Shown here: positions 12,607 through 51,798 of the stretch, piece after piece
Position numbering within the stretch: the first letter of the stretch is position 1
How the letters are laid out: every line of letters begins with the position of its first letter
DNA from: Brytella acorum
GTDB lineage: Bacteria; Pseudomonadota; Alphaproteobacteria; Acetobacterales; Acetobacteraceae
Direction: 5' to 3'
Length of the DNA stretch: 64,000 bases
Assembly: GCF_029309905.1 (NCBI RefSeq)
Contig: NZ_JARBJP010000001.1
Location: forward strand, 558,001-622,000
Notes under the pieces: generated by a model
Told to the model about the DNA's origin: nothing
What the model saw: only the letters and a program-made list of their open reading frames with translations
Database searches by the model: none
Position numbers and translations under genes: made by a program

Positions 12607-12645
12607 AAAAGCCCTGTAGAGCATCGCTCCGCAGGGCTTTTTTTT
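12607..12645 (+). terminator. Rho-independent terminator after rplI
   Basis: AAAAGCCCTG (12607-12616) and CAGGGCTTTT (12632-12641) form a perfect 10-bp stem over a 15-base loop, and the T-run continues to 12645. This is a textbook intrinsic terminator for the rpsF-rpsR-rplI message and is well placed to block read-through into the convergent methyltransferase gene. Confidence 0.92.
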
Positions 12646-37601: not shown

Positions 37602-40033
37602 AAAAGATTCTCGCAGCCGTCATCGGGCTGATCGTCCTCTTCATGGGCGCAAGCCTGGTCGCGAACGTGGTCGTGGACCGTATGGCGCTTGGCGAGAAGA
37701 TTGCCGCCGCCGTGAAACGACAGACCGGGCATGAACTGGGCATCGGAAGCTTTTCGGTTCAGATCTTCCCGTGGCCGGGCTTTGATGCACGCGATGTACG
37801 TCTGGCGGGCCTGCCCGATGGTTCGGGGCATCCGACGTCGCTGTTTTCCGCCCGACAGGTACGCGGAAACATTGCTTTGTTTCCGTTGCTCTGGCGCGAA
37901 GTCCGTCTGGAGCATGTGGTTTTTTCGGATGGCGGTCTGACTCTGCGTCGTGATGCGAGCGGTTTGGCGAACTGGACCCTCCGTCCTGAATCGCAGTCTC
38001 ATGACGCCTCCGATGCGGGCGCGAGGATCAGGGCCGTTCCGACACGCTGGTCCGTGAAGGTTGGAAGTGGGTCTCTATCGGCGCTGGAAGTGAACTGGCG
38101 CGATGCTTTCGCCCATTCGGGAGGGCGCTTCTCGATTGATCGCTTTGAGCTCGATGGTCTGATGTCGCGTTCACCATTCGTGGATCTGAAAGCGCATCGG
38201 GATGCGACGCCATTTACGATCTCGGGTCACATCGGTCCGATCGCAGCCCTCGCAGGCGGCGCGCAGCCCTGGGCTGTAAGCCTTGCGGCCACCCTGGGGC
38301 GCGTCGATTCGACGCCGGACCGTATGTCCTTTGACGGGCAGATCATGAATCCGGAGAGCCTTGGCGGCGTATCGGGCACGACACATGTGTCGCTCATGCA
38401 CCTGACGCGTCTCAACCAGATCTTTCCGAGCGCCAACCTTCCGTCGGTCGACGGGATCGTGGGGGAGATCGGCTTTTTCAATCTGTCGGGTAAACCGCCT
38501 TTCTGGCCCCTGCCTCACGACAGGGGCATCAATCACGTTCACCTACAGATCGGCGCACTTCCTTCCTTTCGTGGGGTGGCGCTCAGTCAGGTTTTGGTGG
38601 ATGCCGCGACCCTGTCCTCACCGCTGTCGATGGTCGCCGAGGTCAAGACAAGTGGTCATGCGATCCATGTTCAGGCTGTGACCGGTACTTTGAATCAGGC
38701 GTTAGACGCGTGGCGCTCCGGATTTGAGACAGCTCTGCCCATAGTGATCGATGCGCATCAAACCGATGGGGACGTCGTATTCTCTCTTCGGGGAGAGTAT
38801 CGGGCGCAGGGATCGACATTTACAATTTCCGGGAAGGCGAACGCGCTTCCGTTGAGAGCCGCGACGCTTCATGAGGCTTCCCTTCAGGCCAGGATCGACC
38901 TGCCGACGCGGGATTCCGTGAATGTGACGGGCCTTTCCTTTGAAAGTCATGAAGCGACGTTCAGCGGTCACGCCGCCTTCGGGCTGAGCGGCGAAGTCGG
39001 TCTGGACGCTGCGATGGATGCGACTTCGCTGGATCTCGATGCCCTGAAAGGTCTATGGGACCGGGTTTCCGCGGCACCGATGCCTGCTTCGCCTGCTGCC
39101 ACCGCGCCGACTTCCGCCGTTCAGCCTGCTTCCCAGACAGAGACGGCGTCCGGCGAATCCCGGGCAACACACACGCTGGCATCCGTGCTCAAGGGGCGAA
39201 ACGGCAAGGTCCACCTGCATATTGGCGCGCTTCGTTTCGACGGACAGGACTATGCCGACCTTCTGGCTGAAGCCGTGCTCGTCAACGGGCATCTGACCAT
39301 AGATCCTCTATCGGGTCACGGTGCGTCCGGGTCTCTGATCGGGAAAGTGGATTATGATGTCAGCCATGATCCGGCCGATCTGAAGATTCGCCTGGCACCG
39401 TTCCTGTTGCCCGCAACCTTCGCCGAGCAGAATCTTGGATATCCGTTGCTGCTGCGCGGACCGCTGGAGGTCGTGGGGGAGTTGAACGCGCAGGGCAATG
39501 ACAGACAGGCGCTTCGTCAGAGCCTCACGGGACATCTTGGACTGTCCATGGTGGGCGGCAGTATCGACGGGCGCCTGCTCGGCGGTTTCCTGGGCCATGA
39601 CGCGGGCGCGTTGCTGAAGCACGGAGAGATCAGCGTCCGCTGTCTCGGAATGCATATGAATATCGTGTCCGGGGTCGCCACTCTGGACACGATGGGGCTG
39701 CAGGCTGGACCTCTCAGCACGACCGGGCATGGAACTTACGGCGTAGGGGATGGTCGTCTGGATCTTCACCTCGTCCCGCGTGTGGGTCTGGGAGGGGCAG
39801 GGGCCTCGACGCCCGTTCTCGTGACAGGTTCTCTTCAGGACCCCATCGTTCAGCAGGAGCGCGGAGAAGACGGGCGGTTTTCCGTCGTGATCGGCGATAG
39901 CGCGCCGGATGTCTGTGGTCCGGCTCTGTCTGCGGCCCGCGAGGGCATGGCCGGTGAAGCGCCCAAGGCGGAAAAAGCCAAGGGCCATGGCAAGGTGAAC
40001 GATATTCTTCATGCTCTGGGACTCTTTCGATGA
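37598..40033 (+). CDS. AsmA-family envelope protein
   Basis: 811 aa with an N-terminal membrane anchor (ILAAVIGLIVLFMGASLVAN, about 4-23) and the AsmA signature GHELGIGSFSVQIFPWPGFDARDVRLA (residues 45-71, in parts). The C-terminal AsmA domain shows GHLGLSMVGGSIDGRLLGG, GVATLDTMGLQAGPLSTTG and GRLDLHLVPR. An Ala/Pro-rich low-complexity linker sits near 495-525. AsmA proteins act in outer-membrane lipid homeostasis. GTG start overlapping the pseudouridine synthase stop. It is the second AsmA-superfamily protein within 10 kb and differs from the first in length and N-terminal domain. Confidence 0.87.
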   Translation: MKKILAAVIGLIVLFMGASLVANVVVDRMALGEKIAAAVKRQTGHELGIGSFSVQIFPWPGFDARDVRLAGLPDGSGHPTSLFSARQVRGNIALFPLLWREVRLEHVVFSDGGLTLRRDASGLANWTLRPESQSHDASDAGARIRAVPTRWSVKVGSGSLSALEVNWRDAFAHSGGRFSIDRFELDGLMSRSPFVDLKAHRDATPFTISGHIGPIAALAGGAQPWAVSLAATLGRVDSTPDRMSFDGQIMNPESLGGVSGTTHVSLMHLTRLNQIFPSANLPSVDGIVGEIGFFNLSGKPPFWPLPHDRGINHVHLQIGALPSFRGVALSQVLVDAATLSSPLSMVAEVKTSGHAIHVQAVTGTLNQALDAWRSGFETALPIVIDAHQTDGDVVFSLRGEYRAQGSTFTISGKANALPLRAATLHEASLQARIDLPTRDSVNVTGLSFESHEATFSGHAAFGLSGEVGLDAAMDATSLDLDALKGLWDRVSAAPMPASPAATAPTSAVQPASQTETASGESRATHTLASVLKGRNGKVHLHIGALRFDGQDYADLLAEAVLVNGHLTIDPLSGHGASGSLIGKVDYDVSHDPADLKIRLAPFLLPATFAEQNLGYPLLLRGPLEVVGELNAQGNDRQALRQSLTGHLGLSMVGGSIDGRLLGGFLGHDAGALLKHGEISVRCLGMHMNIVSGVATLDTMGLQAGPLSTTGHGTYGVGDGRLDLHLVPRVGLGGAGASTPVLVTGSLQDPIVQQERGEDGRFSVVIGDSAPDVCGPALSAAREGMAGEAPKAEKAKGHGKVNDILHALGLFR

Positions 40034-40743
40034 GTTCCGCGAAACGGCGTTTCTGGATGGAGGCGTCTGTTGTTCCGCAGGAGAAGGGGGATTACGGCGT
40101 CGCCCTCGATGGTAGGCTTATCAAACTGCCGGGCGGGCACCTCCTGGTCGTGGCCGCGCGCGCTCTGGCTGATGCGATTGCCGAGGAATGGCGCGCCATT
40201 CCTCCTGACAGTCTCTTCGATGCTTCGGCGCTGCCGTTGACCCGGATGACGGGCACCATGATCGAGCGTGTGGCGCCCGATCTGGATGCGGCGCGCGGCA
40301 CTCTCCTGAATTTCGGCCTTTCGGATCTCCTGCTTTTTCGCGAGGAGACTTTGCGGGACATCCAGTCCGTGCTCTTCGATCCGCCAGTCGATGCGTTCAG
40401 TGAGCGCTATGGTGTCCGGCCGCGCGTAACATTTTCGATCGTGCCCGACACGGTCGAAACGCCTGTCAAAGCGACGATGAGCCGCATTCTTGCCGGGATG
40501 GACGCGGCGGCTCTCGCCTCGTTGGGCGTGCTTGTCCCGGCGTTAGGCAGTCTGATTCTTGGCATCGGCCTTCTTGAAGGCTGGGTCACGGAGACCGCTG
40601 CGTGCGACGCGGCATTTCTTGACGAGCGTACGCAGATGAGACGTTGGGGCGAGGATACCGAGTTACTCGACGACCTTGCCTCCCGTGCGGCCGACGTCGA
40701 AACTGGACTTAAGTTCTGGCAGCTTTCGTTGCGAAAGGACTGA
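40030..40743 (+). CDS. ATP12-family F1-ATPase assembly chaperone
   Basis: A 237-aa homologue of mitochondrial Atp12, which chaperones the F1 alpha subunit before F1 assembly; bacterial forms occur in alphaproteobacteria. Seen: KRRFWMEASVVPQEKGDYGVALDGR, an RLIKLPGGHLLVVAA stretch, LADAIAEEWRAIP, ALPLTRMTGTMIERV, and a C-terminal GWVTETAACDAAFLDERTQ with a DDLASRAADVETGLKFW end. It overlaps the AsmA gene by 4 bases and closes the rarA-rlu-asmA-atp12 run. Confidence 0.92.
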   Translation: MSSAKRRFWMEASVVPQEKGDYGVALDGRLIKLPGGHLLVVAARALADAIAEEWRAIPPDSLFDASALPLTRMTGTMIERVAPDLDAARGTLLNFGLSDLLLFREETLRDIQSVLFDPPVDAFSERYGVRPRVTFSIVPDTVETPVKATMSRILAGMDAAALASLGVLVPALGSLILGIGLLEGWVTETAACDAAFLDERTQMRRWGEDTELLDDLASRAADVETGLKFWQLSLRKD

Positions 40744-40786
40744 TTTAAGCACGATTTCGCCATTTTCACCCGTCACAAGAGCGCTC

Positions 40787-40805
40787 GTTACCTTCGTAAG
40801 GTGAC
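40787..40805 (+). other. 8-bp hairpin downstream of the ATP12 gene
   Basis: GTTACCTT (40787-40794) and AAGGTGAC (40798-40805) form an 8-bp stem (one G-T pair) with a 3-base loop, 43 bases after the ATP12 stop. No T-run follows on the plus strand, so it is only a weak terminator candidate. Confidence 0.35.
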
Positions 40806-40886
40806 GACACGATTGCTTACGCCGTCGCGGGTCGAAATCCCGCACGATGGCAGCATGGTTGACGCCTGAGGGGTTGGGAGAAGCAA

Positions 40887-41081
40887 ATGTCTGGTCGTGC
40901 TGAGATGGGACTCAATCGTTTTTCCGCTACAGGAACGCCAATAAAGGATATCTCTGCGCCCTCGCGTCGTGTGGGTATGAGGGAACATACGGGGCGTGTG
41001 TTTGCGGTGGCCGCTCAAGGGGCCTGGTTTCTGCTGGCGGTTACGCCTGTGATTGTGGTGGTCTGCGCGTTGAGAGGATGA
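40887..41081 (+). CDS. 64-aa protein with C-terminal membrane segment
   Basis: A short frame starting 7 bases after GGGAGAAG encodes a polar, basic N-terminal half (SGRAEMGLNRFSATGTPIKD, RRVGMREHTGR) and one hydrophobic C-terminal helix (VAAQGAWFLLAVTPVIVVVC, about 41-60). It lies between the ATP12 gene and the AT-rich glycosyltransferase patch but itself has normal GC-rich codon use. I recognise no family, and it could be a chance frame; the good ribosome-binding site favours a real gene. Confidence 0.5.
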   Translation: MSGRAEMGLNRFSATGTPIKDISAPSRRVGMREHTGRVFAVAAQGAWFLLAVTPVIVVVCALRG

Positions 41082-41099
41082 GATTGTTCATGAGAAGGC

Positions 41100-41161
41100 G
41101 CTTTTTATAACGGTCATCAAAAATGACGCGATAGTTTTCTTTCGCTATCGCTATAAAAAGC
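41100..41161. repeat. Compact three-way-junction inverted-repeat element
   Basis: An outer perfect 10-bp inverted repeat (GCTTTTTATA at 41100-41109, TATAAAAAGC at 41152-41161) encloses two abutting perfect hairpins: GTCAT-CAAAA-ATGAC (41113-41127) and GCGATAG-10-CTATCGC (41128-41151). Only three bases are left unpaired at the junction. It lies 58 bp past the stop of the minus-strand glycosyltransferase gene, at the edge of the AT-rich patch. A composite terminator for that operon is the simplest reading (on the minus strand the 7-bp hairpin is followed by GTCATTTTT); a palindromic mobile relic is another. Confidence 0.7.
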
Positions 41162-41219
41162 CGACCTTTCATCTCATATGTTCGAGTGCCAGACATTGAC
41201 TCGCCCATAGAATCTCACA

Positions 41220-42383
41220 TTATTGCCTTCGTACTAGCTCCATTTCCGAGCGTAAACGACGGATTTGCTCGTCATCACGCCATGCGGGGCGATAAGAGCA
41301 TTCATGATGGATCGACTGAAAAATTGCGGCGTTTTCATCGACATGCTGCTGCGAGAAATTGGAAATTGAATCCTTAATTTCGAGGCCGCCACTTAGTAAA
41401 AAGAACGTTTTGGATGCTCCATCGGCTTTAGTCAGGCCTCCATATCCCATTCTGATCATGCGGGACGTGTGTTCGACGTGCTCGTGCCCATAGCGACCGA
41501 AACGACTGTCGATATAGCCGACATAGGAAAGTGCCTGACGCGCGAAACCTGAACATTGAGCTGTCAGAATGTCGCTGTGAAGCGGATCATGCCAAGAACC
41601 ATTGCCTGTCCCCCCCTGCGGAAACCAGGAAGGAGCGAAGTTAACATGACCAAACTGGATACAGGCCAGAATCCAATCCACGTTCCAGCCGTATACCGTT
41701 GGTTGAGCGTCGTCCTCCAGCAATAAAACCACGTCACATTTTTCAATTTCATGAAGATTGAATAATAGACGGTTTTTATTCCAGGCAATGCCGGCATTAG
41801 GTGCGTCGAGAACGTTAATTCCTTTGATATGACTAAGTACTTCCGCCGTATTATCACTGGATCCATCGTTAGAAACAAGGATGAGAGGGTTGAACGGCGT
41901 TAAGTCCTTGACTCGCTGGATCGTCTCCAAGACCATCGATGACCGGTTATATGTCGGAATGCCGATCCCGAGCCGAATGTTTTGAAGGGGGGTCCGAGTC
42001 AAAGCCGTGGCGCTGACCTCTTCTTTCGGGGGCAAAGAAAGTCGTGATATTTTGCCTTTCTTCTCAAAGGATAGTTCCATACTCTGGAGCATCGCGAGGG
42101 AAATATCATCAGGGAACGGAAATTCGACAGTGAAGCGCACTGTGCTGTAGCGCGGCTCTGTTGACGCTGCCACGTCCAGACTTTTCTGCCGCCACTCTCC
42201 AGATTGGGCTGTATGCAAAAGCCTATTGTTGTACAGGACGTGCAATGTTTCGAAATCGTTGCTGTCCAAAAACCAGCCGGAAATCGATACTTTTCCTTCG
42301 CCTGTTCTGACGTGATCTATTGAATAGCGACTTTTCGGTGCGGGAAAATGGTGTGATGCGATAAGCGATTCGGAGAGGGTCAT
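41220..42383 (-). CDS. Family 2 glycosyltransferase (AT-rich patch)
   Basis: 387 aa. An N-terminal beta-rich domain of about 120 residues (SGWFLDSNDFETLHVLYNN) resembles the accessory repeats of the large glycosyltransferase at 17283-19799. A GT-A domain follows: IRLGIGIPTYNRSSMVLETI (about 140-159), LVSNDGSSDNTAEVL, then LLLEDDAQPT holding the metal-binding acidic triad (about 225), and a late CSGFARQALSYVGYID segment. It is last in a minus-strand series behind the 593-aa glycosyltransferase. GC content is visibly lower than in the flanking genes, suggesting transfer. The substrates are unknown. Confidence 0.8.
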   Translation of the reverse strand: MTLSESLIASHHFPAPKSRYSIDHVRTGEGKVSISGWFLDSNDFETLHVLYNNRLLHTAQSGEWRQKSLDVAASTEPRYSTVRFTVEFPFPDDISLAMLQSMELSFEKKGKISRLSLPPKEEVSATALTRTPLQNIRLGIGIPTYNRSSMVLETIQRVKDLTPFNPLILVSNDGSSDNTAEVLSHIKGINVLDAPNAGIAWNKNRLLFNLHEIEKCDVVLLLEDDAQPTVYGWNVDWILACIQFGHVNFAPSWFPQGGTGNGSWHDPLHSDILTAQCSGFARQALSYVGYIDSRFGRYGHEHVEHTSRMIRMGYGGLTKADGASKTFFLLSGGLEIKDSISNFSQQHVDENAAIFQSIHHECSYRPAWRDDEQIRRLRSEMELVRRQ

Positions 42384-42598
42384 GTCGATTGAGACCTTAT
42401 TCGGGCAAAGGAACGCGACTTCATAGAACCTGACCCTTTATACGATACTTATTCAAATAACAAAAATATGTTTGTCTCGCACCCATGCGACAGAATAATC
42501 CAGGTCATATGTGAAATTATTTTCATATATTATGAAATCTATTCAAAATTAAGATAATATCTCTCATTTGCGCGGTTCTTTATGAATATCTTGTAGAT
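42384..42598 (-). other. AT-rich intergenic DNA with a 7-3-7 palindrome
   Basis: This 215-bp gap between the two glycosyltransferase genes is very AT-rich and has no gene. It contains TTTCATA-TAT-TATGAAA (42521-42537), a perfect 7-bp inverted repeat with a 3-base centre, about 138 bases upstream of the 387-aa gene. It probably holds that gene's promoter; the palindrome could be an operator. Confidence 0.45.
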
Positions 42599-44380
42599 CT
42601 ATAAATTGTTTTGCAAAGACGCATTAATTATATTAACAAAATAATCTTTTTCTTCGTCGTTGAATATTTCTTCTTTTGATATTAAGGGAATTGCCGTTTC
42701 TATGATTGATTTATAGGCTTCAAAAAAAGAAGAAATGGCCGCTGTTTCGGCTTCTCGCACTCCCGGCAAGTCTCTAATTCTTTTTGCTTCGTCAGATGCT
42801 TTATTCAGGCATAGAAGAGCTCTGGTTTCGGAGAGTGTCTCTTCATCATTTTTATATCTGAGCCAGTCAGTGAAAAAAGATGGTCGAAACTTAAAGCTTT
42901 TGTCGGCGCGGAATGTTGAATTTCGCCCGCGTGCGTTTTTCATGCAGAATTCCTGGAAGCTGCGATAAAAATAATGCCCTATCCAGGCGTTGTTTTCATT
43001 AAAGGTCAAAGCGCAAGTGGCACCGTTTCGCTCCATGGCAATGGGTTGTCCGTCCGCATTTGCGTAAGTTATGTCATGAGCTTTGGGCCAAAGTGCTGTA
43101 TGAGCATGTGCGAATGAAAAGTAGCGTGTCTGAAAAATTGACTTGATGCAGCGATTTCCTGCCGGTTCCCGCCTTAAATTTTTTTCCCATACATGTTTAC
43201 GCTCGTAGTTCACCCCGGAGGGAGCCATCATAACCCAATTTAACGCGACCGCTTTCTGTCCGGAATATTCATGCAGTTGAAGAAAATCTCTTAAATTGGA
43301 GAATTTGTTATGATTTAAGATAACGAGTTCGTCGAGATCAATTACTATACTCCACTTATAATCTAGAGTATCCGGAAGAATTGATAGTGCATGTGCATAG
43401 GATTTTCTTTGGGGTATGCATCCTGTTGGATTGCTATCAATCCAAGTTATGAAATCATGTCGGGACAGGGCTTCTAATAAAGCATCTGATCCGTCGTTAT
43501 TGTCATTTGTATAAAGAAAAAAGTGATCGACACCCATGCTTAAGTGCCAACCAATCCAATCTATGGTTAAAAGCGCTTCATTGCGAGCTGTTGCAACGAT
43601 ACAAATGTTTTTTCGTGGAGCTATATCTCTTCGGAACTCTGCTGCGATATCGAAGCCAAGGGGCCCCGGTTGACTTTCTCCGAGATCAGTCGTGGCAAGC
43701 TTGTCGTCTGCGGCGGTAAGGCGCTTAAGTCGCGTGGGTGTACGATCGCTTTTCCAATTGAGAAGAGCAGGAATCCCGTCTGTGAACCATGGGTCTTCCG
43801 GAAAACACACGCGAAGATCATGTAAAAAGTCAATATCTTTTTTAAGAACCGAGCAAAAATTTATATACTCTTCGTTGCTCAATATGCGAATTGAGGCTTC
43901 TATATAGTCTTTTACCATAGAAGGACTAAATAATTTTATCCAAGAATAAATAGTTTTATGATCTAATTCTTTTATATTTAAGAGAGCTTCCAGATAAGCG
44001 GGAATATTGTTAGCTGTCGGGAATGTCGAAAACCACTCCCATTCATTCATATCTTGTGCCTCAAAGTCGACATGTTCATTTGGATGAGCACGTAAAAAGA
44101 GACTCCAGCCGCTCCTTTGAATGGCGACGCCATGCGGATTTTGAATTAACTGAACGGCGATGGCCTTTGTATTATTATCGCTGGACACAAAATCGAAGCG
44201 ACAATTATCTTGTGGGTACAATAAAAATGCCTGATGTGGAAAAAATTTGAACGGTGCCAAAACTGCATAATATTCTGCTTTTAGAGTTTGGGAATTTATT
44301 GTTGTGTGCGTTTGCTCATCGAAGCCAACAATACCTCCGAAGGCCGATGTAAGGCCGAATAACTGAATGGTATTATTCAC
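42599..44380 (-). CDS. Glycosyltransferase, family 2-like (Glyco_tranf_2_4 type; AT-rich patch)
   Basis: 593 aa. The first 240 residues are a poorly conserved N-terminal region. The catalytic part begins at NICIVATARNEALLTIDWIG (about 262), with WHLSMGVDHFFLYTNDNNDG, SYAHALSILPDTLDYKWSI, and the acidic VIDLDELVIL (about 342), the layout of PF13704-type glycosyltransferases often found in capsule or lipopolysaccharide loci. A C-terminal helical stretch (about 520-593) is acidic and Asn/Ile-rich. Codon use is AT-rich throughout, unlike ispDF immediately upstream. It probably acts with the 387-aa glycosyltransferase downstream. The product is unknown. Confidence 0.75.
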   Translation of the reverse strand: MNNTIQLFGLTSAFGGIVGFDEQTHTTINSQTLKAEYYAVLAPFKFFPHQAFLLYPQDNCRFDFVSSDNNTKAIAVQLIQNPHGVAIQRSGWSLFLRAHPNEHVDFEAQDMNEWEWFSTFPTANNIPAYLEALLNIKELDHKTIYSWIKLFSPSMVKDYIEASIRILSNEEYINFCSVLKKDIDFLHDLRVCFPEDPWFTDGIPALLNWKSDRTPTRLKRLTAADDKLATTDLGESQPGPLGFDIAAEFRRDIAPRKNICIVATARNEALLTIDWIGWHLSMGVDHFFLYTNDNNDGSDALLEALSRHDFITWIDSNPTGCIPQRKSYAHALSILPDTLDYKWSIVIDLDELVILNHNKFSNLRDFLQLHEYSGQKAVALNWVMMAPSGVNYERKHVWEKNLRREPAGNRCIKSIFQTRYFSFAHAHTALWPKAHDITYANADGQPIAMERNGATCALTFNENNAWIGHYFYRSFQEFCMKNARGRNSTFRADKSFKFRPSFFTDWLRYKNDEETLSETRALLCLNKASDEAKRIRDLPGVREAETAAISSFFEAYKSIIETAIPLISKEEIFNDEEKDYFVNIINASLQNNL

Positions 44381-46227: not shown

Positions 46228-47418
46228 TCATGCTTTGAGAGCGTCAAGCCCGCGCTGGAGATCGGCGATCAGGTCCACAGCGTCTTCCAGGCCGACGGAC
46301 AGGCGGATCGCCCCGTCCGTAATGCCCAGACGTGTCCGTTCTTCCGCGCCTACCCGCATATGGGTCGTCGTGGCCGGATGGGTGGCGAGGGAACGGGAAT
46401 CGCCGAGATTGTTGGAGATGGCGACCAGCTTGAGCGCGTTGAGAAAGCGGAACGCGCCTTCCTGACCGCCCGCGACTTCGAAGGCGACCATTGATCCGCC
46501 ATTGGTCATCTGTCGTCTGGCCAGTTCGGCCTGCGGATGGTCGGCGCGTCCCGGATAGCGGAGTTGCACGATGCCCGGCGCGTCAGCGAGGAAGTCCGCG
46601 ACGGCGGCGGCATTGCGCGCCATGGCGTCCACGCGCAGCGGTAGCGTCTCCAGACCTTTCAGCAGAACCCAGGCATTGAAGGGCGAGAGTGCGTTGCCGG
46701 TATTGCGCGTGTAAGGCTGAAGGGTCTCCTCGATCCATTGTTTCGGACCGAGCACGGCCCCGCCGAGAACGCGACCCTGTCCGTCGATATGTTTCGTACA
46801 GGAATAGAGGATAACATCCGCGCCAAGTTCCAGGGGCTTCTGCCCAACCGGAGAGGCGAACACATTGTCGACCATCAGGAGCGCGCCCGCGCTGTGGGCG
46901 AGGTCCGCGATGCGGGCGATATCCAGCACATCCAGCATCGGGTTGGACGGGCTCTCGAGCAGCACCGCCGCGGTCGGCTTCGACAGGGCTTCCGCCCAGG
47001 CCTCGAAATCGTCGCCATCCACGAAAATGGCTTCGACACCGTAACGCGGCAGAAGATTCGCGACGATCCAGTAGCAGGAACCAAACAGCGCACGCGACGC
47101 GACGACGCGGTCTCCCGTCTTCACATGCGAAAGGATCGCCGAAGAGACTGCGCCCATGCCCGTCGCGGTCACAATGCAGGCTTCGGCGCCTTCGAGCATG
47201 GCGAGGCGACGTTGCAGCGCGTCCGTCGTCGGGTTGCCGAAGCGCGTGTACTGATAATGCGTGACGTCACCCGTAAACGTCGCCGCGGCCTGCTCGGCGC
47301 TGTCATAGACGAAGCCCGAGGTCAGGAAGATCGCTTCGCTGGTTTCGCCATAGGAGGTGCGTTCCACCGTTTCATGCAGAAGACGCGTATTCAGCCCCTT
47401 GAAATGGGAATCGGACAT
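46228..47418 (-). CDS. metZ: O-succinylhomoserine sulfhydrylase
   Basis: PLP enzyme that makes homocysteine directly from O-succinylhomoserine and sulfide in methionine synthesis. At 396 aa it belongs to the Cys/Met metabolism family: YGETSEAIFLTSGFVYDSAEQA, YTRFGNPTTDALQRRLAMLEG, ATGMGAVSSAILSHVKTGD, the PLP-lysine motif YSCTKHIDGQG (about 207) and RLSVGLEDAVDLIADLQRGL. The assignment as MetZ rather than MetB or MetY rests on overall pattern and on the SAM-II riboswitch upstream, a classic metZ regulator in alphaproteobacteria. The start follows GGAG. Confidence 0.92.
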   Translation of the reverse strand: MSDSHFKGLNTRLLHETVERTSYGETSEAIFLTSGFVYDSAEQAAATFTGDVTHYQYTRFGNPTTDALQRRLAMLEGAEACIVTATGMGAVSSAILSHVKTGDRVVASRALFGSCYWIVANLLPRYGVEAIFVDGDDFEAWAEALSKPTAAVLLESPSNPMLDVLDIARIADLAHSAGALLMVDNVFASPVGQKPLELGADVILYSCTKHIDGQGRVLGGAVLGPKQWIEETLQPYTRNTGNALSPFNAWVLLKGLETLPLRVDAMARNAAAVADFLADAPGIVQLRYPGRADHPQAELARRQMTNGGSMVAFEVAGGQEGAFRFLNALKLVAISNNLGDSRSLATHPATTTHMRVGAEERTRLGITDGAIRLSVGLEDAVDLIADLQRGLDALKA

Positions 47419-47505
47419 GGAAAAAACGCTCCAAAATACGGGCGGCCCTCGTAGGAGGCCGCACGATTCTGGCCGTGGAAGTCCTGATGCGGAAATGCCG
47501 ACATC

Positions 47506-47564
47506 CGGGCCTCTTTAGCGCGGTTGTTTAGCCTCGCCGCAAGCCGGCCGTTCAAATCGCGAGG
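47506..47564 (-). promoter_or_regulatory. SAM-II riboswitch (SAM_alpha/metA element) upstream of metZ
   Basis: Read on the minus strand: a P1 stem CCTCGC (47564-47559) with GCGAGG (47537-47532), the conserved GATTTGA just inside the 5' arm, CTTGCG just before the 3' arm, then CTAAAC and GCGCTAAAGAGG downstream. These elements and their order match the SAM-II consensus (GATTTAA, GCAAGCGCG, AGCTAAAAAGG). A loop GGCC can pair with the 3' GGCC to form the pseudoknot. The aptamer ends 87 bases before the metZ ATG. SAM binding would shut off metZ when methionine is sufficient. Confidence 0.85.
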
Positions 47565-47579
47565 ACCACGAAACGTGGT
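47565..47579. promoter_or_regulatory. Perfect 6-3-6 inverted repeat abutting the riboswitch
   Basis: ACCACG-AAA-CGTGGT lies directly next to the 5' edge of the SAM-II aptamer. On the RNA it would make a short hairpin stacked before P1; on the DNA it could be a regulator site over the metZ promoter. Nothing in the sequence decides between the two. Confidence 0.5.
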
Positions 47580-51024: not shown

Positions 51025-51798
51025 TCATTCGTGACGCAGCGTCACCACCAGAACGTCACGATGGGCCGGTCTGGCCGGATCGACGGGTTCGACGCCGGTA
51101 ACGCCGTGATATACGCGGTGGTCGTCGACGAAAGCCGTATCCATGGGCTCTTCAAGGGTGAAAGACCCCACGGGCGCTCGATGGATGTCATGAATGGAGG
51201 TGACGCCGGAGCGGACGTTTTCACGCGCCACCATCATCACCATCACCCAGTCCACGCCATCGCGATGCATGCCTTCCGGTGTGGGGCTGCCAAGCATGTC
51301 GGCACGGGCTTCGATCCGGAACTGATGGACTTCGGCATGCCAGGAGTCCGGTCGCTCTGCGGGGAGCGTCAGAGCGTAGGCGAGGCTGCCAAAGAGGCGG
51401 AGGGACGCGATCATCGCCGGATGCTCGCCCACATTGTCCTCAATGGCGCGAAACCAGCGTTCAATGCCGCCATTGAGCACGTTGTAGTCGCGGCTTTGAT
51501 AATGGGGCTGATGGCGCTTGCGGCTGATGCCTGCAGGGGAGAGGGAGAACGTTCCGTAGCGCCGCCGACGGTATCGACCGCCATCCGCCATGTAACGATC
51601 CAATCCGAGCCGATCCCAGCTTGCGGCGAAACTCTCCCAGTCGCGAGCACCAAAATGCCGCAGGAGCGGGTCCATCAGAGGCGCGCGACGATAACAGAAC
51701 CCTTCTTCGCCCAATGCGCTTCGAATCGGCGCGAGGGTCTGCGCCAGCGAAGGGTCGCGCGCCGGGTCCGTCAGGGCCGTGTTGGGGATCGCTTTCAT
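51025..51798 (-). CDS. Fe(II)/2-oxoglutarate dioxygenase (PF10014 type, amino-acid hydroxylase-like)
   Basis: 257 aa. Motifs fit the 2OG-Fe dioxygenase family that includes Bacillus L-isoleucine dioxygenase: the iron triad His178-x-Asp180 in PEGMHRDGVDWV and His231 in HRVYHGVTGV, with Arg247 in AHRDVLVVTL as the likely 2-oxoglutarate ligand. The N-terminal half carries GEEGFCYRRAPLMDPL and RRRYGTFSL, which are also family-like. The substrate is probably a free amino acid or related molecule (inference). I chose the ATG with GGAGAG upstream (MKAIPNT); the frame extends 87 bases further into argJ. It lies 29 bases after argJ. Confidence 0.85.
   Translation of the reverse strand: MKAIPNTALTDPARDPSLAQTLAPIRSALGEEGFCYRRAPLMDPLLRHFGARDWESFAASWDRLGLDRYMADGGRYRRRRYGTFSLSPAGISRKRHQPHYQSRDYNVLNGGIERWFRAIEDNVGEHPAMIASLRLFGSLAYALTLPAERPDSWHAEVHQFRIEARADMLGSPTPEGMHRDGVDWVMVMMVARENVRSGVTSIHDIHRAPVGSFTLEEPMDTAFVDDHRVYHGVTGVEPVDPARPAHRDVLVVTLRHE

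What the first reader, a model, noticed from the sequence alone, without database searches (positions are those of the whole stretch)
41100..41161. Compact three-way-junction DNA/RNA element at the edge of an AT-rich patch
A 62-bp stretch is almost fully paired: a perfect 10-bp outer stem encloses two abutting perfect hairpins (5 and 7 bp). Such complete nesting is unlikely by chance. It could be an unusual composite terminator for the minus-strand glycosyltransferase genes, a small structured RNA, or the relic of a palindromic mobile sequence.
Basis: seen in the sequence. Interest (0 to 1): 0.6.

Follow-up and report, generated by a model that had tools for sequence, protein, structure and literature searches.

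The report
Folded palindrome between two convergent genes
A 62-base stretch between the facing ends of two genes in a bacterium of the acetic-acid family can fold into a neat three-way junction; only one copy and no relatives were found, and it most likely marks or protects the ends of the two messages without being a standard terminator.

Summary
At 41100-41161 a perfect 10-bp outer stem encloses a 5-bp hairpin and an abutting one of 7 Watson-Crick pairs plus G-U; 46 of 62 bases pair on the plus strand, and the minus strand folds into a similar, slightly shifted junction. It is unusual but not overwhelming: 0 of 200 shuffles fold as well, and the nested architecture turns up 9 times in 700 composition-matched shuffled windows.

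It lies in a 138-bp gap between a conserved 64-aa ORF (+) and an inserted glycosyltransferase gene (-). At the same junction one related genus has canonical terminators in four of five genomes; five genomes of four other genera do not. The window element has no U-tract after its stems and scores below zero as an intrinsic terminator on both strands.

No second copy was found in the held genome, and no convincing homologue in 397 family genomes, 385 class genomes, plasmids, phages or E. coli, so covariation is untestable.

Best reading: a lineage-specific, U-tract-less gene-end structure (0.42); main rival: a functionless palindrome (0.32). Low interest.

The parts
41100..41109 (.). Outer stem, left arm (10 bp)
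   Evidence: Perfect complement of 41152-41161.
41113..41127 (.). Inner hairpin A: 5-bp stem, 5-nt loop (plus-strand fold)
   Evidence: Minimum-free-energy fold.
41128..41151 (.). Inner hairpin B: 7 Watson-Crick pairs plus one G-U, 8-nt loop (plus-strand fold)
   Evidence: Minimum-free-energy fold.
41152..41161 (.). Outer stem, right arm (10 bp)
   Evidence: Perfect complement of 41100-41109.
41078..41177 (.). Imperfect outward extension of the palindrome; the left end overlaps the stop codon of the small ORF
   Evidence: Folds of longer stretches, partners listed.
41082..41219 (.). 138-bp gap between convergent genes that holds the element
   Evidence: ORF list and rough gene call; fold z -3.7.
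40887..41081 (+). Conserved small ORF, 64 aa, hydrophobic C-terminal part; downstream of the ATP12 chaperone gene
   Evidence: tblastn matches in 8 relatives' loci that also match ATP12, ispDF or both; no Pfam or NCBIfam family.
41220..42383 (-). Glycosyltransferase family 2 gene whose 3' end faces the element
   Evidence: PF00535, E 2.1e-10.
42599..44380 (-). Second glycosyltransferase gene (PF13704 / PF01697) of the AT-rich insert between the small ORF and ispDF
   Evidence: Pfam; composition.

Best explanation
The element is a gene-end structure shared by two convergent transcription units. The ATP12/small-ORF message (plus strand) and the glycosyltransferase message (minus strand) would each carry, after the stop codon, a similar three-way-junction RNA, because the palindrome is nearly symmetrical. 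I infer that it works by folding as RNA polymerase leaves it, giving both messages a defined, exonuclease-resistant 3' end and helping to stop or slow read-through into the opposing gene, together with Rho or polymerase collision and not by classical hairpin-plus-U-tract release. Shown: the fold, the convergent position, canonical terminators at the orthologous junction in one related genus, and the missing U-tract. Inferred: transcription through it, the 3' ends, any effect on read-through, and any replacement of an older terminator.
For: Stable fold on both strands. Position in a 138-bp convergent gap. Of the three best z-score structures in the window two lie in convergent gaps: this one and the region of a canonical bidirectional terminator at 12611-12637; the third lies inside a gene. 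At the orthologous junction the intrinsic-terminator score of the best strand is 43.5 or more in 4 of 10 relatives (L006, L007, L013, L015), and a further one (L014) has a hairpin with z -4.3. Published support for the kind: in Zymomonas mobilis, another alphaproteobacterium, 34% of 3' ends that map to intrinsic terminators are convergent, against 7.5% of the others (PMC7566282, passages); hairpin clusters without U-trails are reported at many gene ends by a computational study (PMC8355165, abstract and one section).
Against: No U-tract; terminator score -14.2 (+) and -8.6 (-). No homologue, so no covariation or conservation. The five relatives with a clear hairpin or terminator are all of one genus (g79), so they count as nearly one observation; the other five scored (L003, L017, L033, Acidomonas L043, Tanticharoenia L044; four genera) have none or at most a score of 11.6, so the junction does not require one. 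Of five convergent gaps of 50 nt or more in the window, two fold no better than shuffles (z 0.6 and 0.1). No RNA data.
Confidence: 0.42

Rival explanations
1. It is a functionless palindrome: a chance or mutational product (for instance template-switch events, which write reverse-complement copies) kept in a non-coding gap at the edge of an inserted AT-rich glycosyltransferase block.
For: One copy found, no conservation. The architecture arises 9 times in 700 local-composition shuffles of the 64 kb, about 1% per window. Five of ten relatives do without a clear structure at the junction. Template switching is documented as a source of perfect stems (PMC8794818, abstract and opening).
Against: Only 2 of 1000 shuffles of the gap itself match its stability. 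It sits in a convergent gap, where structures are expected.
Confidence: 0.32
2. It is the relic of a mobile palindromic element or of an insertion sequence. The left arm resembles a stretch of IS5-type transposase genes (the IS5 label is my recall of the encoded motif, not a database result).
For: 20 of 20 bases (24 aligned columns with one gap) match a transposase-like gene in one relative and 19 of 20 match in three further places. The element borders an insertion of foreign-looking genes.
Against: The E-value of the best such match is 0.007 for one genome, with 397 genomes searched, so a few are expected by chance. The similar gene in the own genome does not match the arm well. No second copy was found, and I saw no flanking duplication.
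Confidence: 0.1
3. It is a weak intrinsic terminator for the minus strand: a 7-bp hairpin folds first, and the run GUCAUUUUU that follows it on that strand acts as a displaced U-tract before the three-way junction closes.
For: On the minus strand GCGATAG/CTATCGC (10-nt loop) is followed by GTCATTTTT (read).
Against: A four-base spacer before the U run; best minus-strand score -8.6. The simple scan did not report it, but its loop limit of 8 nt could not have.
Confidence: 0.08
4. It is a small regulatory RNA or a 3'-UTR-derived RNA that acts in trans.
For: A compact stable fold on both strands.
Against: No Rfam match at the element, no conservation found. Promoter-like sites in 38000-44000 are no more than chance (4 found, 5.1 expected).
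Confidence: 0.05

Closest known systems
Bidirectional intrinsic terminators between convergent genes
   Same: Position between two facing 3' ends; inverted repeat readable on both strands.
   Different: No U-tract after the stem on either strand (the U run lies in the 5' arm of the outer stem); three-way junction instead of one hairpin; terminator score below zero.
Hairpin clusters without U-trail at gene ends (Gupta and Pal 2021, PMC8355165)
   Same: More than one hairpin close downstream of a stop codon and no U-trail.
   Different: Here the two hairpins are enclosed by an outer stem; whether termination occurs is unknown.
REP/BIME palindromic repeats and MITEs (recalled)
   Same: Intergenic, palindromic, about 60-100 bp.
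   Different: These are multi-copy families; one copy of this element was found in the held genome.
Integron attC sites (recalled)
   Same: Imperfect inverted repeat that can fold as a single strand.
   Different: The attC core heptamers are not seen by eye, and only one such site was found.

Membership tests
Intrinsic (Rho-independent) terminator | Stable stem directly followed by a U-rich tract | tested here: not met
   No U-tract after the outer stem on either strand; best scores -14.2 (+) and -8.6 (-), while canonical ones in relatives score 43.5-60.5 on their best strand. The score formula is recalled, not taken from a call.
Intrinsic (Rho-independent) terminator | Transcript 3' ends at the element | not testable with these tools
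   Needs Term-seq or in vitro transcription.
U-tract-less hairpin cluster at a gene end | Two or more stable hairpins within about 80 nt downstream of a stop codon | tested here: met
   Plus strand: hairpins at 41113-41127 and 41128-41151, 32-70 nt after the small-ORF stop at 41081. Minus strand: only partly, since the same stretch lies 69-107 nt after the glycosyltransferase stop at 41220. The 80-nt figure is from the abstract of PMC8355165. Termination itself was not tested.
Palindromic mobile repeat (REP, MITE) | Several copies in the genome or in relatives | tested here: not met
   Only the locus itself by DNA, exact outer-arm pattern and covariance model (which also lists the locus's reverse strand) in the held, 42-contig own genome; no convincing match among the listed matches in 397 family genomes.
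Conserved structured RNA | Compensatory base changes among homologues | tested here: inconclusive
   No homologue to align: the genus holds one genome; the one model match outside the own genome (G216, E 0.03 per genome, 397 genomes) is at chance level and its sequence does not resemble the element.
Known Rfam family | Covariance-model match | tested here: not met
   None at the element at E <= 5 or at gathering thresholds.
Integron attC site | Paired core heptamers ending the inverted repeat | tested here: not met
   Not seen on reading the sequence; motif recalled, no program was run.

The most novel reading that the evidence does not exclude
A nearly symmetrical three-way-junction RNA that ends or protects two convergent messages at once without any U-tract: a bidirectional, fold-only gene end formed where foreign glycosyltransferase genes landed at the junction.
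Probability: 0.12. Interest if true: 0.4.

Novelty: new member of a known kind. Interest (0 to 1): 0.17.

Why it matters
If it shapes the ends of both messages, it would be a compact, testable example of how convergent genes in a bacterium are kept apart without a standard terminator, and of how gene ends turn over when foreign genes insert at a junction. As evidence stands it is one element with no known relatives, so it matters little beyond this locus.

Tried and rejected
Copies or homologues: own genome by DNA, by the outer-arm pattern and by a covariance model built from this one sequence: only the locus itself (one search also lists its reverse strand). Sixty relatives by DNA of 40740-41230: two matches outside the own genome, neither over the element. 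Family, 397 genomes drawn from a larger group, by DNA: 197 genomes have some match at E <= 1, but only two candidates per genome were scored and the list is cut; the listed ones over the element are short. By the model (stricter filters): one further genome, chance level. I read eight of the DNA matches; none folded into the same shape. Class, 385 genomes: six short weak matches outside the own genome, not inspected. Plasmids, phages, E. coli: none. Viral contigs by the outer-arm pattern: four AT-rich stretches with different insides.

IS5-type transposase relic: the left arm resembles a stretch of such a gene, but the E-value (0.007 for one genome, 397 searched) and the poor match to the own genome's similar gene made me reject it as evidence. 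The shuffles use targets that had been picked because they match, so their zero counts for the left arm are not a fair test; for the right arm 7 to 15 of 500 shuffles did as well, and its similarity is not independent since it mirrors the left arm.

Terminator travelling with the glycosyltransferase: homologues at 66-68% identity in three genomes of one other genus. Of 29 homologue loci (L065-L093) I compared eleven (L065-L075) and printed flanks of six; the 3' side was in view for four (L065, L066, L068, L070) and none holds the element. For L067 and L069 the printed side was the 5' side; their genomes were within the model search.

Rho signature: C-over-G counts around the element were weak and not diagnostic.

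Full report
What is there. The sequence at 41100-41161 folds as described: on the plus strand a perfect 10-bp outer stem, three unpaired bases, a 5-bp hairpin, and an abutting hairpin of 7 Watson-Crick pairs plus one G-U. The minus strand folds into a similar junction with shifted partners (13-pair outer stem). Free energies are -21.8 and -22.8 kcal/mol; 0 of 200 dinucleotide shuffles fold as well on either strand. In folds of longer stretches the pairing goes on imperfectly outwards, to about 41078 and 41177.

How unusual. The number of pairs alone is not rare: 280 of 21,313 grid positions have as many, mostly in GC-rich sequence. Stability for its composition is: none of 333 positions of similar GC is as stable, and 18 of 21,313 grid positions beat it after GC correction. 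By shuffle z-score (100 shuffles; only the 400 best-residual positions and the element were re-scored) it is third after clustering. Within its own gap, 2 of 1000 shuffles contain any 62-mer as stable. A nested architecture of at least 8/5/6 pairs occurs once in the real window, 0 times in 60 whole-window shuffles, and 9 times in 700 shuffles made in 500-bp blocks. The criteria were set after seeing the element. It is probably, not certainly, more than chance.

Where it is. My rough gene call and the ORF list put it in a 138-bp gap between two convergent genes: a 64-aa ORF on the plus strand (40887-41081) and a family-2 glycosyltransferase on the minus strand (41220-42383; PF00535). The small ORF is supported by conservation: tblastn finds it in 8 relatives' loci, including Acidomonas methanolica and Tanticharoenia sakaeratensis, beside ATP12, ispDF or both. 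The closest named relatives place the window in the acetic acid bacteria (Acetobacteraceae; family name recalled). In four relatives (L003, L007, L013, L043) the small ORF lies within about 150 bp of the end of ispDF; here two AT-rich glycosyltransferase genes (41220-44380; GC 36-50% against 58-65% on both sides) lie in between. In L006, L014 and L015 the distance is about 570 bp, and in Tanticharoenia about 1.5 kb with a long minus-strand ORF, so the junction seems to accept insertions.

What stands at the same junction elsewhere. I scored ten syntenic relatives with a recalled intrinsic-terminator formula: the 8 with a small-ORF match and two more (L017, L033). Best-strand scores are 43.5 to 60.5 in four (L006, L007, L013, L015), 12.3 in L014, 11.6 in Acidomonas, 4.1 in L033, and none or negative in L003, L017 and Tanticharoenia. 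Of the 8 checked for folding, z of the best 62-mer is -4.3 or lower in L006, L013, L014 and L015. All five with a clear hairpin or terminator (L006, L007, L013, L014, L015) belong to one genus (g79), so this is close to one evolutionary observation. In three of those five (L006, L013, L015) the terminator is strong on both strands.

Is this one a terminator? By the textbook definition, no. On both strands the U run lies in the 5' arm of the outer stem, not after the stem, and the best scores are -14.2 and -8.6. The stretches leading into the U runs fold no better than shuffles. A similar scan of the whole window found only one site with scores above 20, at 12611-12637, strong on both strands and also in a convergent gap. 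Of the five convergent gaps of 50 nt or more, two fold with z -3.7 to -3.8 (that one and this one), one with -2.3 and two no better than shuffles. Published work fits both halves: intrinsic terminators concentrate between convergent genes in Zymomonas mobilis (PMC7566282, passages seen), and one computational study finds hairpin clusters without U-trails at many gene ends (PMC8355165, abstract and section 13 read).

Is it a repeat or a mobile relic? In the held own genome (3.32 Mb, 42 contigs) one copy was found by DNA, by pattern and by covariance model. DNA and model searches of 397 family genomes and a DNA search of 385 class genomes listed only short or chance-level matches over the element; plasmid, phage and E. 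coli collections gave none. The left arm resembles part of a transposase-like gene, but at E 0.007 for one genome over 397 genomes this is expected by chance.

What cannot be said. There are no RNA data here. A template-switch origin (mechanism in PMC8794818, abstract and opening seen) is possible but has no alignable outgroup to test it.

Verdict. A real, moderately unusual fold in a place where gene-end structures belong, lacking the hallmark of an intrinsic terminator, found once and without known relatives. The gene-end reading is the best supported (0.42), a neutral palindrome the main rival (0.32).

Noticed in passing
window 47494-47573 (-): Alphaproteobacterial SAM riboswitch (RF00521 SAM_alpha, 64.9 bits), just upstream of a minus-strand Cys/Met metabolism PLP enzyme gene at 46228-47418.
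   Followed up: partly
window 40887-41081 (+): Small conserved ORF between ATP12 and ispDF in acetic acid bacteria, ending in a hydrophobic motif like GAWxLLAxTPxIVVVCAxxG; no Pfam or NCBIfam family.
   Followed up: partly
window 41220-44380 (-): Two AT-rich glycosyltransferase genes inserted between the small ORF and ispDF; the first has 66-68% identical homologues in three genomes of one other genus.
   Followed up: partly
window 12611-12637: Canonical bidirectional terminator in a convergent gap (scores 52 on + and 28 on -).
   Followed up: no
L098 3735-3779 (viral contig IMGVR_UViG_3300012002_000028): The same 10-bp arms belong to a 19-pair hairpin that directly follows a second strong hairpin, the U run lying between the two.
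   Followed up: no
window 51699-51755: A second, weaker nested three-stem architecture (outer stem 7 bp) found by the looser version of the same scan.
   Followed up: no
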